Positions 43,467 through 45,223 of a DNA stretch of 64,000 bases are shown here, piece by piece. How positions within the stretch are numbered: position 1 is the stretch's first letter; every line of letters starts with the position of its first letter. Location of the stretch: contig LQXN01000064.1 of assembly GCA_001648575.1 (NCBI GenBank), positions 186,001 to 250,000 on the forward strand, in the 5' to 3' direction. The DNA comes from Sutcliffiella horikoshii DSM 8719 (GTDB lineage Bacteria; Bacillota; Bacilli; Bacillales; Bacillaceae_I). Position numbers and translations under genes: made by a program. The notes under the pieces were generated by a model, which was not told the DNA's origin, made no database searches, and saw only the letters and a list, made by a program, of their open reading frames with translations.

Positions 43467-43676
43467 ACTTTCACCTCCAAAGAAATGCTTAGGCAAGAGC
43501 CCAGTAATAATTCTTATGTAGGAAAAGGCTTACGTGTGCAAGTACACTTCAAAATAAATCCAAAATTAACTGTCATATTAACTATTCCTATAAAACATTA
43601 ATTTATGTGTCAATTCTGACGATTAATGGTACAATTTCAATAAGAAGAACAAATGTTCATCCCAAAGAACAAAAAA

Positions 43677-43700
43677 ATCTTCCTATCGAAATAGGAAGAT
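43677..43700 (-). terminator. Terminator of the pro-peptide / 78-residue gene unit
   Basis: The perfect 10-bp stem ATCTTCCTAT / ATAGGAAGAT with a 4-base loop is followed by seven T on the minus strand, next to the stop at 43702. There is no terminator between the 40- and 78-residue genes, so both can share a transcript. Confidence 0.9.
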
Positions 43701-43701
43701 C

Positions 43702-43938
43702 TTAATATTGAATATACGGGTATTTTTTCAATTTGGAAGGAATGGTACCTTTGCCTACTTTGACTACACTGTACTCTTGAAACAAAGTTTCAAACCACTT
43801 AGAGACTTCTGCATATGTTTTATTTTTGTAATCCACAAGCTGGGCAACCCGGTAACGCCTACGCGCCTTTTGCTCACGATCTACTACGATAAACCAAAAG
43901 CATGTAAGCTCAAAAGTGTTCGTACTGGTCATTGACAT
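43702..43938 (-). CDS. Unknown 78-residue protein downstream of the pro-peptide gene
   Basis: I do not recognise this family. It is a basic, soluble protein with no signal peptide or membrane segment; visible blocks are FWFIVVDREQKARRRYRVAQ and KTYAEVSKWFETLFQ. An AGGAAGG lies 8 bases upstream of the ATG, supporting real translation. It follows the PapR-like pro-peptide gene by 30 bases on the same strand and precedes a strong terminator. It may be a target or accessory of the PlcR-like regulator; that is inference from position. Confidence 0.7.
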   Translation of the reverse strand: MSMTSTNTFELTCFWFIVVDREQKARRRYRVAQLVDYKNKTYAEVSKWFETLFQEYSVVKVGKGTIPSKLKKYPYIQY

Positions 43939-43968
43939 GATATCAGCCTTCCTTTTTAGAATTATTTA

Positions 43969-44091
43969 TTAATGTAAAGGCGGTAACTCATTTGTTTTAA
44001 AATCATCAGATGGACCCGCATGAGAAGTAACTGCACTTGCGCCAAACAACGTTAAAGAAACTACTAGAAATGTTAAGATGAACTTCTTCAT
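43969..44091 (-). CDS. Secreted 40-residue pro-peptide, PapR-like signal precursor
   Basis: The precursor has a positively charged start (MKK), a hydrophobic core (about 4-20, ILTFLVVSLTLFGASA) and a short polar tail, GPSDDFKTNELPPLH. Signal peptidase could cut after ASA or SHA. The size, signal peptide and C terminus with a Leu-Pro step match the pattern of PapR from the Bacillus cereus group, whose active peptide ends in an LPFE-type sequence. GAGG lies 9 bases upstream. It is divergent from a PlcR-like regulator gene. Receptor binding is inferred, not shown. Confidence 0.78.
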   Translation of the reverse strand: MKKFILTFLVVSLTLFGASAVTSHAGPSDDFKTNELPPLH

Positions 44092-44175
44092 TTTTCATTA
44101 CCTCTTTCTATTATTTTATTTGAATTACTGTATAGCTATCTTTAATAAGTATTTTACACTATATCAAAAAAACGC

Positions 44176-44199
44176 AAATCACTCGATATCGGGTGATTT
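44176..44199. promoter_or_regulatory. 24-bp palindrome between pro-peptide and PlcR-like genes
   Basis: The half-sites AAATCAC and GTGATTT surround a centre CGATATCG, with only one mismatched pair in 12. It lies 84 bases from the pro-peptide start and 93 bases from the regulator start, in an otherwise AT-rich divergent promoter region. There is no T run, so it is not a terminator. The likely role is operator for the PlcR-like regulator; it does not match the B. cereus PlcR box (TATGNA-N4-TNCATA). Confidence 0.6.
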
Positions 44200-44292
44200 A
44201 TCAAATAAATCTATGTTTTCCTCATGTTTCCTATGATTTTCGTTTTCAATTATAACTCTAGGAATATTTTATTAGTTAGGATGTGATATATT

Positions 44293-45180
44293 GTGGATTT
44301 TTCGTTAATTGGGAAAGAGATAAAAATCCTGCGATCTGCACTAAACTTATCACAAGCTGAGTTGAGTGAAGGGATCTGTACACAGTCACAGATCAGTAAG
44401 ATTGAGAAGGGGGAAGTGTATCCTCTTGCTAATACTTTATATTATATAGCAGAAAGACTTGGAGTGGATATAAATTATTTTTACGATCTAGCCACAAATC
44501 CACAATTATCCTATGTAAAGGAAGTTTTTACACAAGCTCGAGAACTATTAAACCGAAGTGAAATTGAAGAAATTTCTGTAATTGTTGAAACTGAGAGAAA
44601 TAACCCTCTTTTCATTAATAACAGGAATAATAAGCAATTCCTCCTATGGATGGAAGGAATATGTGTTTACCATTTAAAAAAGAATAAAAGAGAGGCTTTA
44701 AGACTATTACAAAGTGCTTTGGATTTGACCAAAATGACTTCGAAATTGTTAGGAGAAAGAGAAATAGAAATTCTCAATAGTATGGGTATAGTTCACTTTG
44801 AGACTAAAAATTGTGAGGAAGCCTTAAAAATCTTTAACCTTGCAATTGAAAGTTATATGAAAATTCCATATCACCATGATCCTACAATTAAAACGAGAAT
44901 ATTATATAATAAGGGGAAAACTTTAACTAGGTTACATAAACTTGAAGAATCTAATGTAACATGCAAGCAAGCGGTAAAATGGTGCGTGAAACAAAATAGC
45001 TTGTACGCTCTAGCCAACCTCTACTACCACATCGGCTACAACTATAGCCTTTTACTTAATAACGATATTGCAATAGAGTATTATAACAAATCCATTCAAA
45101 TTTTTATGATTCAGGAGAATAAGGTGTTTGTTAAACATATTAAAGAAAAAATCGACGAACTGTCCATTCTTATTGAGTAA
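44293..45180 (+). CDS. PlcR-like transcriptional regulator (HTH plus TPR, RRNPP family)
   Basis: The 295-residue protein has an N-terminal XRE helix-turn-helix (about 5-60: IGKEIKILRSALNLSQAELSE, CTQSQISKIEKGEVYP) and a C-terminal helical repeat region of about five TPRs (about 70-290). Length and the N-terminal pattern resemble PlcR of the B. cereus group, a receptor for the imported PapR peptide. It starts with GTG; AGGA lies 11 bases upstream (weak). Codon use is AT-rich compared with neighbours, suggesting acquisition. Divergent from a PapR-like pro-peptide gene and ended by a bidirectional terminator. Confidence 0.85.
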   Translation: MDFSLIGKEIKILRSALNLSQAELSEGICTQSQISKIEKGEVYPLANTLYYIAERLGVDINYFYDLATNPQLSYVKEVFTQARELLNRSEIEEISVIVETERNNPLFINNRNNKQFLLWMEGICVYHLKKNKREALRLLQSALDLTKMTSKLLGEREIEILNSMGIVHFETKNCEEALKIFNLAIESYMKIPYHHDPTIKTRILYNKGKTLTRLHKLEESNVTCKQAVKWCVKQNSLYALANLYYHIGYNYSLLLNNDIAIEYYNKSIQIFMIQENKVFVKHIKEKIDELSILIE

Positions 45181-45183
45181 ATA

Positions 45184-45214
45184 AAAAAACTAGGCATCTC
45201 AGCCTAGTTTTTTT
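45184..45214. terminator. Bidirectional terminator between PlcR-like gene and ABC transporter
   Basis: The stem AAACTAGGC / GCCTAGTTT has T runs on both sides. It serves the regulator on the plus strand and the permease/binding-protein gene on the minus strand. Confidence 0.9.
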
Positions 45215-45223
45215 ATTTACTTC

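What the first reader, a model, noticed from the sequence alone, without database searches (positions are those of the whole stretch)
43702..45180. Divergent PlcR/PapR-like quorum-sensing cassette with its own small gene
Seen: a 295-residue XRE-HTH plus TPR regulator lies divergent from a 40-codon gene for a secreted precursor ending GPSDDFKTNELPPLH, with a palindrome between them and a terminator at each end. Known: in the B. cereus group PlcR (HTH plus TPR) binds a C-terminal fragment of secreted PapR whose core is LPFE-type. Inferred: NELPPLH or a shorter LPPLH form is the re-imported signal. The divergent order differs from the co-directional plcR-papR of B. cereus, and the host appears to lie outside that group. 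The cassette is AT-rich and inserted between conserved sigK and an ABC transporter.
Basis: partly seen in the sequence, partly recalled or inferred. Interest (0 to 1): 0.85.

Follow-up and report, generated by a model that had tools for sequence, protein, structure and literature searches.

The report
Divergent peptide-signalling gene cassette in Sutcliffiella
This stretch of DNA carries what looks like a bacterial cell-to-cell signalling unit: a small secreted peptide gene, the receptor-regulator it most likely talks to, and a third small conserved gene; relatives carry many-copy versions of the peptide and, in one genome, appear to have swapped peptide and receptor together as a pair.

Summary
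In detail: a 295-aa HTH-TPR regulator (44293-45180 +) lies divergent from a 40-codon secreted-type precursor ending NELPPLH (43969-44091 -). All 17 family genomes with the regulator keep the divergent precursor. In its wider clade, 38 of 43 motif-blind divergent secreted-like ORFs carry [DE]LP, one or two residues, then H/Y/F/L/M (shuffles: mean 0.9, maximum 6). Relatives encode up to nine tandem copies of the hexapeptide, so the likely mature unit is ELPPLH. One genome (G013) has receptor plus precursor replaced as a block (61% identity inside, 93% outside). The closest solved fold is PlcR-PapR7-DNA, but in the tree PlcR groups with other paralogs: a sister clade that works like PlcR, not PlcR itself. 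Export, peptide binding and regulation are inferred. Verdict: new variant of a known kind (five-TPR RRNPP).

The parts
44293..45180 (+). Receptor-regulator, 295 aa: N-terminal HTH (about residues 7-66), then TPR/RNPP_C domain
   Evidence: AlphaFold2 pLDDT 90.7; PlcR best in PDB by sequence and by fold
43969..44091 (-). Secreted-type signal precursor, 40 aa, signal-peptide-like N terminus, C terminus NELPPLH
   Evidence: conserved divergent partner in 17 of 17 family loci; pN/pS 0.34 over 15 genus sequences
43972..43989 (-). Codons of the proposed mature signal ELPPLH
   Evidence: tandem units ELPPIH, ELPPQH, ELPPIY, ELPPVH and others in relatives
43702..43938 (-). Third gene, 78 aa, function unknown, probably co-transcribed with the precursor (30-bp gap, shared terminator)
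   Evidence: pN/pS 0.098
44251..44266 (+). Conserved 16-bp box TATAACTCTAGGAATA; its left half resembles a -10 of the regulator's own promoter
44145..44162 (.). Conserved element in the precursor promoter (ATAAGTATTTTACACTAT on +; ATAGGAATAATACACTAT in more distant relatives, which shares TAGGAATA with the box)
44176..44199 (.).
43674..43703 (-). Terminator-like hairpin after the third gene (precursor operon)
45176..45221 (+). Terminator-like hairpin after the regulator

Best explanation
It is a self-contained peptide quorum-sensing cassette of the five-TPR RRNPP kind, in a clade sister to PlcR. The 40-aa precursor is exported by Sec and trimmed to a C-terminal peptide, most likely the hexamer ELPPLH. 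That peptide is re-imported by an oligopeptide permease and binds the TPR groove of the divergent regulator, which changes how the regulator binds the box at its own promoter and the related element at the precursor promoter. I infer that the loaded regulator activates the precursor plus 78-aa operon (positive feedback) and holds down its own promoter, since the box overlaps a -10-like sequence there. The 78-aa protein would then be a main output. Shown by computation: receptor family and fold, conserved divergent precursor, conserved hexapeptide core with tandem copies, conserved box, conserved third gene, one apparent block exchange of receptor plus precursor. Inferred: export, processing, import, binding, sign of regulation, and the output role.
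For: RNPP_C E 2.2e-13. PlcR is the only full-length PDB sequence hit (1e-16; the two others are ComR fragments) and first of 198 by profile (1.2e-40). Foldseek top hit PlcR-PapR7-DNA 3u3w, E 4.8e-12, TM 0.72/0.75. Divergent precursor in 17 of 17 family loci. In the wider clade 43 of 72 rows (17 of them this family) have a motif-blind divergent secreted-like ORF at 140-230 bp; 38 of 43 match [DE]LP..?[HYFLM], shuffles mean 0.9, max 6 of 43 in 2000 trials. Multi-copy precursors with 2-9 units. In G016 the first copy ELPPQH follows ANAVSA directly, which fits release of its N terminus by signal peptidase. Box score at least 13 of 15 in 49 of 91 rows, 32 of them outside the family that gave the consensus, against 0 of 91 shuffled. 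Exact pattern once per genome in 15 of 16, reversed control 0. Block exchange in G013 covering receptor plus precursor: core 61%, flanks 93% against L010. Third gene beside the receptor in 17 family genomes and, as remote homologues, in G044 and G086. Eight SBP_bac_5 matches in the own genome, all above the Pfam cut-off, so peptide import is plausible.
Against: No expression, binding or peptide data. For 16 of the 72 clade rows I accepted no precursor (a few secreted-like ORFs without the motif were seen there in other orientations), so not every receptor has an adjacent one that I could recognise. The last seven precursor codons are not more conserved than the signal part (pN 0.198 against 0.159). 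The box overlaps a -10-like sequence and part of its conservation may be promoter conservation; it is only 10 of 16 self-complementary. The automated promoter scan found no excess (10 against 8.2). Signal-peptide calls rest on a hydropathy, lysine/arginine and ribosome-site filter, not SignalP. The receptor-signal residue correlation is weak once all columns are ranked (position 89 is 41st of 292).
Confidence: 0.85

Rival explanations
1. The regulator is a peptide receptor of this type, but the system is a master regulator of a scattered regulon (as PlcR is), and the 78-aa gene is a bystander of the sigK region.
For: PlcR controls 45 genes through 28 boxes (PMC2464732, passages seen). One near-match to the box (1 mismatch) lies 75 bp upstream of a lipoprotein-like gene. 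In G013 the third gene stayed with its surroundings when receptor and precursor were exchanged. Other clades have a different third gene or none that I saw.
Against: The exact box pattern occurs only once in each of 15 of 16 genus genomes, at the regulator. With up to 3 mismatches the reversed control pattern has more hits in the own genome (92) than the box (60). The 78-aa gene also sits behind the precursor of more distant receptors (36% identity) in another GTDB family.
Confidence: 0.3
2. The small ORF is a signal for another receptor (for example a Rap), or a Phr-like peptide; the neighbouring regulator does not bind it.
For: The NCBIfam PhrK family matches weakly (E 4.5e-4, 20.4 bits, cut-off 35, residues 1-37 of 40).
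Against: ORF and regulator stay paired across genera, and were exchanged together in G013. The C-terminal motif follows the regulator clade.
Confidence: 0.05
3. Low identity in the G013 core reflects fast in-place divergence under diversifying selection, not exchange of a block.
For: Quorum-sensing loci can diverge fast (recalled); the nearest relative of the G013 core in hand, L014, is only 75% identical to it.
Against: In 40-bp windows identity to L010 falls from 98% (-360) to 65% (-320) and 48-60% in the next windows, between the third gene and the precursor, and returns from 65% (+920) to 95% (+960) just after the regulator. The G013 core is nearer L014 (75%) than L010 (61%), while its flanks are nearer L010 (93%) than L014 (76%).
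Confidence: 0.1
4. The regulator is an ordinary non-peptide XRE regulator and the small ORF is an unrelated secreted peptide or a bacteriocin-like product.
For: Divergent small ORFs next to XRE regulators are common in general (recalled).
Against: TPR/RNPP_C domain, PlcR as closest fold, hexapeptide core and tandem repeats.
Confidence: 0.03

Closest known systems
PlcR-PapR of the Bacillus cereus group (PDB 2QFC, 3U3W)
   Same: HTH plus five-TPR regulator of similar length (293 residues in 2QFC); short secreted precursor (PapR 45 aa as given in PMC3519770); peptide core [DE]LPxx(aromatic or His); 16-bp box with TAT...ATA ends
   Different: 25% identity in the fold alignment; PlcR sits with other paralogs in the tree; K89/Q237/Y275 replaced by S89/N242/F279; box TATAACTNTAGG[AC]ATA, not TATGnAnnnnTnCATA; precursor divergent, while papR lies downstream (recalled for papR; PMC9765709 says so for Bacillales systems); third gene present; no sign of a scattered regulon
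PlcRa-PapRa of B. cereus (PMC3519770)
   Same: PlcR paralog with the precursor gene upstream of the regulator; peptide CSIPYEY lies inside a longer precursor; peptide-dependent DNA binding shown there by gel shift
   Different: Peptide core IPYEY; its authors found no palindromic box and no autoregulation (passages). Its sequence was not in hand, so its place in the tree is untested
NprR-NprX, Rap-Phr and AimR-AimP families with repeated propeptides (PMC9765709, PMC11343458)
   Same: Secreted precursors with several copies of the mature peptide
   Different: Other receptor subfamilies; [quoted passage not shown]
RRNPP_Detector candidate clusters (PMC10075063)
   Same: A survey of receptor-propeptide pairs; its clusters may already contain some of these loci
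   Different: Section 7 and passages read; figures are not held and supplements could not be opened. The parts seen do not mention this peptide code, box or third gene

Membership tests
RRNPP (RRNPPA) peptide receptors | HTH plus TPR/RNPP_C architecture; validated receptors 285-473 aa | tested here: met
   length range from a passage of PMC10075063
RRNPP (RRNPPA) peptide receptors | Adjacent small secreted propeptide | tested here: met
   (hydropathy filter, not SignalP)
RRNPP (RRNPPA) peptide receptors | Direct binding of the re-imported peptide | not testable with these tools
   needs a bench assay; Opp-type binding proteins exist in the genome
PlcR subfamily | Groups with PlcR in a tree | tested here: not met
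   PlcR_2qfc falls with 9 other rows, split from this clade by a branch with 100/100 support; one PlcR fragment only, long branch, midpoint root
PlcR subfamily | Residues contacting PapR Glu6 (Lys89, Gln237, Tyr275; PMC6568020 passage) | tested here: not met
   S89, N242, F279 in the window protein
PlcR subfamily | PlcR box TATGnAnnnnTnCATA | tested here: not met
   conserved box is TATAACTNTAGG[AC]ATA; same length and ends only. The genome was not searched with the PlcR box itself
PlcR subfamily | papR downstream, same direction | tested here: not met
   divergent in 17 of 17 family loci; among fetched loci downstream only in the f44 sub-clade
NprR / Rap / AimR | Nine-TPR fold, or three-helix bundle N terminus | tested here: not met
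   295 aa; top folds are PlcR, then ComR, with other TPR proteins and Rgg/PrgX further down; no NprR, Rap or AimR among the 50 listed
PhrK pheromone family (NF038040) | Score above the curated cut-off (35 bits) | tested here: not met
   20.4 bits
PlcRa-PapRa | Clusters with PlcRa; CSIPYEY-type peptide | not tested
   PlcRa sequence was not in hand; peptide core differs

The most novel reading that the evidence does not exclude
A dedicated, local quorum-sensing circuit in which the receptor and its hexapeptide precursor form an exchangeable specificity module (pherotype), while a fixed third gene for a small protein of unknown fold is the sole or main output. Different clades would plug different third genes behind the same kind of module, and amplify the signal by expanding the number of hexapeptide copies per precursor.
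Probability: 0.4. Interest if true: 0.75.

Novelty: new variant of a known kind. Interest (0 to 1): 0.62.

Why it matters
It extends PlcR-like signalling well beyond the B. cereus group: 181 of 397 order genomes hold a relative of the regulator at E 1e-20 or better. The hexapeptide code can be read from tandem precursors, so signal, receptor and candidate operator can each be predicted in these hosts. The G013 exchange and the changing signal residues give a natural series for testing how peptide-receptor specificity evolves, and the third genes are a short, testable list of unknown outputs.

Tried and rejected
A scattered regulon: the box with up to 3 mismatches gave 60 hits in the own genome, fewer than the 92 of the reversed control, and the exact pattern gave one hit per genome; contexts of 6 near-matches were read and one lipoprotein-like gene remains a weak candidate. 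Receptor-signal co-variation: among 35 representatives, an acidic penultimate signal residue goes with K/H at position 89 in 5 of 5 against 1 of 30, and a basic one with D242 in 3 of 3 against 2 of 32; the classes were chosen after seeing the table, the rows are related, and position 89 ranks only 41st and 242 139th of 292 columns, so it is kept as a hint. Function of the 78-aa protein: no Pfam or NCBIfam hit, AlphaFold2 pLDDT 76.6, best Foldseek match E 0.45. Phage and plasmid searches gave only relatives under 60% identity: 2 phage records at 23%, 38 plasmid records, best 39% on a Sutcliffiella plasmid. G001, the one family genome without the cassette, is 80% complete and its best sigK match is 48%, so its absence is uninformative. 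A second stretch chosen to place G013 was repetitive and gave nothing usable.

Papers: PMC9765709, PMC10075063 and PMC12700828 (section 7 and passages), PMC3519770 (section 5 and passages), PMC11343458, PMC6568020 and PMC2464732 (passages); others only as search listings. Searches for print. Nothing in the listings and passages seen names this peptide code, box or third gene, but the library lacks most subscription papers and supplements could not be opened.

Full report
What is there. The regulator ORF runs from GTG 44293 to the stop at 45180 (295 aa). Divergent from it, 201 bp away, is a 40-codon ORF (43969-44091 minus) with lysines at the start, a hydrophobic stretch and the C terminus NELPPLH. 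Thirty bases after its stop, on the same strand, comes a 78-codon ORF (43702-43938) with its own ribosome-binding-like sequence (AAGGAAGG), followed by a terminator-like hairpin at 43674-43703; the regulator ends in another at 45176-45221. No terminator-like hairpin was reported between precursor and 78-aa gene, so the two probably form one operon (inference). The region has 31-34% GC against mostly 40-48% around it.

The regulator is an RRNPP receptor by sequence and fold. Pfam finds HTH_19, HTH_3, TPR models and RNPP_C above cut-off. The only full-length PDB sequence hit is PlcR (1e-16); with the 19-row profile PlcR is first of 198 (1.2e-40). AlphaFold2 gives pLDDT 90.7 and pTM 0.73. Foldseek puts PlcR with PapR7 and DNA first (3u3w, E 4.8e-12, TM 0.72/0.75), the four other listed PlcR chains next, then ComR; further down come other TPR proteins, Rgg and PrgX.

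Host and conservation. Named relatives put the host in Sutcliffiella (91% to a S. horikoshii record; inference). In the genus 15 of 16 genomes, the own one included, carry the regulator at 60% identity or more; the sixteenth (G001) is 80% complete and its best sigK match is only 48%. Two further family genomes carry it. These 17 loci all have the divergent precursor (15, 2), the 78-aa gene (17 of 18 genomes) and sigK beside it; the ABC permease on the other side was found in 15 of 17. So the cassette is an old resident of this family, not a recent insert. Pooled pN/pS over the 15 genus sequences is 0.34 for the precursor, 0.098 for the 78-aa gene and 0.19 for the regulator (uncorrected Nei-Gojobori counts).

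The signal. In the genus the C termini are NELPPLH (3), NELPPLY (5), NELPSIH (3), TELPTRH (2) and QELPYQH (2), following the receptor's clades. Three genomes (G005, G007, G014) hold a second precursor between the first and the 78-aa gene with 7, 7 and 9 units of ELPPIH/ELPSIH. In G016 the precursor is MKKLILTTLIVTFALLGANAVSAELPPQHSIAKELPPQH: two copies, the first directly after a signal-peptidase-like site. Beyond the family, precursors carry 9, 8 and 6 copies of ELPPIY, 5 of ELPPVH, 4 of ELPPVY, and two copies in several others. The repeating unit defines a hexapeptide. Lined up with PapR7 (ADLPFEF; PMC6568020, start of abstract and passages) it reads x-[DE]-L-P-x-x-[H or aromatic].

Is that more than chance? 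A motif-blind scan (start codon, ribosome-site, early lysine or arginine, hydrophobic stretch) over the 72 rows of this regulator's clade found a divergent ORF 140-230 bp away in 43 rows. Of these 43, 38 match [DE]LP..?[HYFLM]; shuffling the part after residue 22 gives a mean of 0.9 and a maximum of 6 in 2000 trials. The other 5 are visible variants (ELPDNPY twice, TDLPGWAY, tandem AIPFPPRML, tandem DLPFPPWVF). Of the remaining 29 rows, 5 have a divergent precursor that the scan placed farther away or dropped (L016, L105, L109, L152, L154; L105 and L154 were found with the motif itself), 5 have it downstream (f44), 3 convergent (DLPYCH, DLPWCH, DIPFHH; these too first seen with a motif search), and for 16 I accepted none, although a few secreted-like ORFs without the motif were seen in other orientations. 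Five near-identical rows and 19 rows outside the clade were left out before the count. The rows are related (17 are of one family), so the figures are not independent.

Not PlcR itself. In a 92-row maximum-likelihood tree, PlcR (one 283-residue fragment) groups with nine other rows, among them a second receptor of the window's own genome (L002, 28.8% identity, its own divergent precursor ending NDPTLPSED), and a branch with 100/100 support separates them from the clade of the window's regulator. The PlcR branch is long and the root is a midpoint, so the exact order is unsure. PlcR residues that contact PapR Glu6 are S89, N242 and F279 here.

The box. The 15 genus loci and both other family genera have TATAA[CT]T[ACGT]TAGGAATA 18-26 bp before the regulator start. 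Scored on 15 fixed positions, 49 of 91 rows reach 13 or more against 0 of 91 shuffled (maximum 12); 32 of these 49 lie outside the family from which the consensus was made, 30 of the 32 at 14-30 bp from the start. The exact pattern TATAAYTNTAGGMATA occurs exactly once in each of 15 of 16 genus genomes, each time 18-26 bp before the regulator, and its reversed control never. In Brevibacillus migulae (L016), where the precursor lies far from the regulator, a near copy, AATAACTATAGGAATA, lies 132 bp upstream of the precursor start instead; in the window the box is 159 bp from the precursor start. The left half looks like a -10 (TATAAT in several rows), so some of the conservation may be promoter conservation. 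Length and TAT...ATA ends recall the PlcR box TATGnAnnnnTnCATA (PMC2464732 passages). The precursor promoter has its own conserved element, which in several relatives shares TAGGAATA or TATAACTATAG with the box. That the regulator binds these sites is inferred.

The third gene. The 78-aa protein matches no Pfam or NCBIfam family and its model (pLDDT 76.6) matches nothing convincing in the PDB (best E 0.45). In the order search 115 of 397 genomes had a match at E 1 or better, but only the 17 of this family are strong; the next two, G086 (0.0028) and G044 (0.010), would not stand on score alone, since others follow at 0.012. They stand by position: each lies behind a divergent precursor (ending MGFGYIHG and TGFGHYHG) of a receptor 36% identical to the window's. 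The G044 sequence was itself in the profile used, so its profile score is not independent; G086 was not in it and scored 4.1e-13. In G086 an ORF with a DDE transposase domain lies between precursor and regulator. Other clades have a different small gene behind the precursor: about 105 aa with NMKVQPSFFDEECAIVFSFYF in f29 and similar ones in f27, f38 and f47, and 66-69 aa in f19 (compared by eye). Whether these are outputs is inferred from position.

Exchange of receptor plus precursor. G013 (L039) is 91-98% identical to L010 in 200-bp windows on both sides of the cassette, but 61% on average between the precursor's 3' end and a point just after the regulator; against L014 it is 75% inside and 76% outside. 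The breakpoints fall near the precursor stop, before the 78-aa gene (about -320), and just after the regulator (about +950). A 1.4-kb downstream flank of L010 finds G013 at 92% and G009 (the genome of L014) at 75%. The simplest reading is that receptor and precursor were replaced together by a module of another lineage, leaving the third gene in place. One case only; whole-genome relatedness was not measured.

How it most likely works. Export, trimming to ELPPLH, uptake by an oligopeptide permease (eight SBP_bac_5 matches, two of them with equal scores and perhaps duplicate copies), binding in the TPR groove, altered binding at the two promoters. I expect activation of the precursor operon and restraint of the regulator's own promoter. 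The sign of both effects is a guess from PlcR and from the box position.

Compared with print. PMC9765709 states that Bacillales systems encode the pheromone immediately downstream of the receptor gene and reports up to six copies per propeptide, with repeats in 3 of 15 atypically large PlcR propeptides (section 7 and passages). Here the divergent order is the commonest (48 of 72 rows) and copy numbers reach nine. PMC3519770 already describes a PlcR paralog with an upstream precursor and an internal peptide. PMC10075063 and PMC12700828 record orientation of candidate pairs in figures I could not see, so some of these loci may be listed there. Hence: new variant of a known kind.

Noticed in passing
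L002 (G000:C12:12923-13735) and L003 (G000:C34:9696-10508): A second RNPP-type receptor of the same genome, in two copies on two contigs with equal scores, with a divergent secreted-like precursor ending NDPTLPSED; it groups on the PlcR side of the tree (L002 in the tree).
   Followed up: partly
L043, L044, L045 upstream of the regulator: Other Sutcliffiella receptors with divergent precursors ending DDPGIGWRY; behind one (L043) a short ORF with EANAIVFSF recalls, by eye, the 105-aa third gene of other clades.
   Followed up: no
L105 (G165), L106 (G214), L107 (G189): Precursors with 9, 6 and 8 tandem copies of AELPPIY, most separated by KPSSLGLV-type spacers.
   Followed up: partly
L134 (G039) and L153 (G082): Tandem precursors with a different core (AIPFPPRML five times; DLPFPPWVF twice) beside receptors of the same clade.
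   Followed up: no
L110-L112, L117-L123, L129-L131, downstream of the precursor: A recurring protein of about 105 aa (NMKVQPSFFDEECAIVFSFYF...FLNVIGIKKC in f29); the representatives tested had no match above cut-off (three in Pfam, two in NCBIfam).
   Followed up: partly
L182 1994-3469 (G086:C1:2143500-2147500): An ORF with a DDE transposase domain (Pfam DDE_Tnp_IS240) lies between the precursor plus third gene and the regulator of a related cassette.
   Followed up: partly
L017, L020, L023 (Peribacillus): Receptors of the same clade with a box-like element (TATAATTATATGAATA) but no precursor recognised; the same two downstream ORFs (about 220 and 410-416 aa) follow in all three.
   Followed up: no
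L032, L034, L035: The second, multi-copy precursor encodes mainly ELPPIH plus one ELPSIH, while the first precursor of the same genomes encodes ELPSIH.
   Followed up: partly
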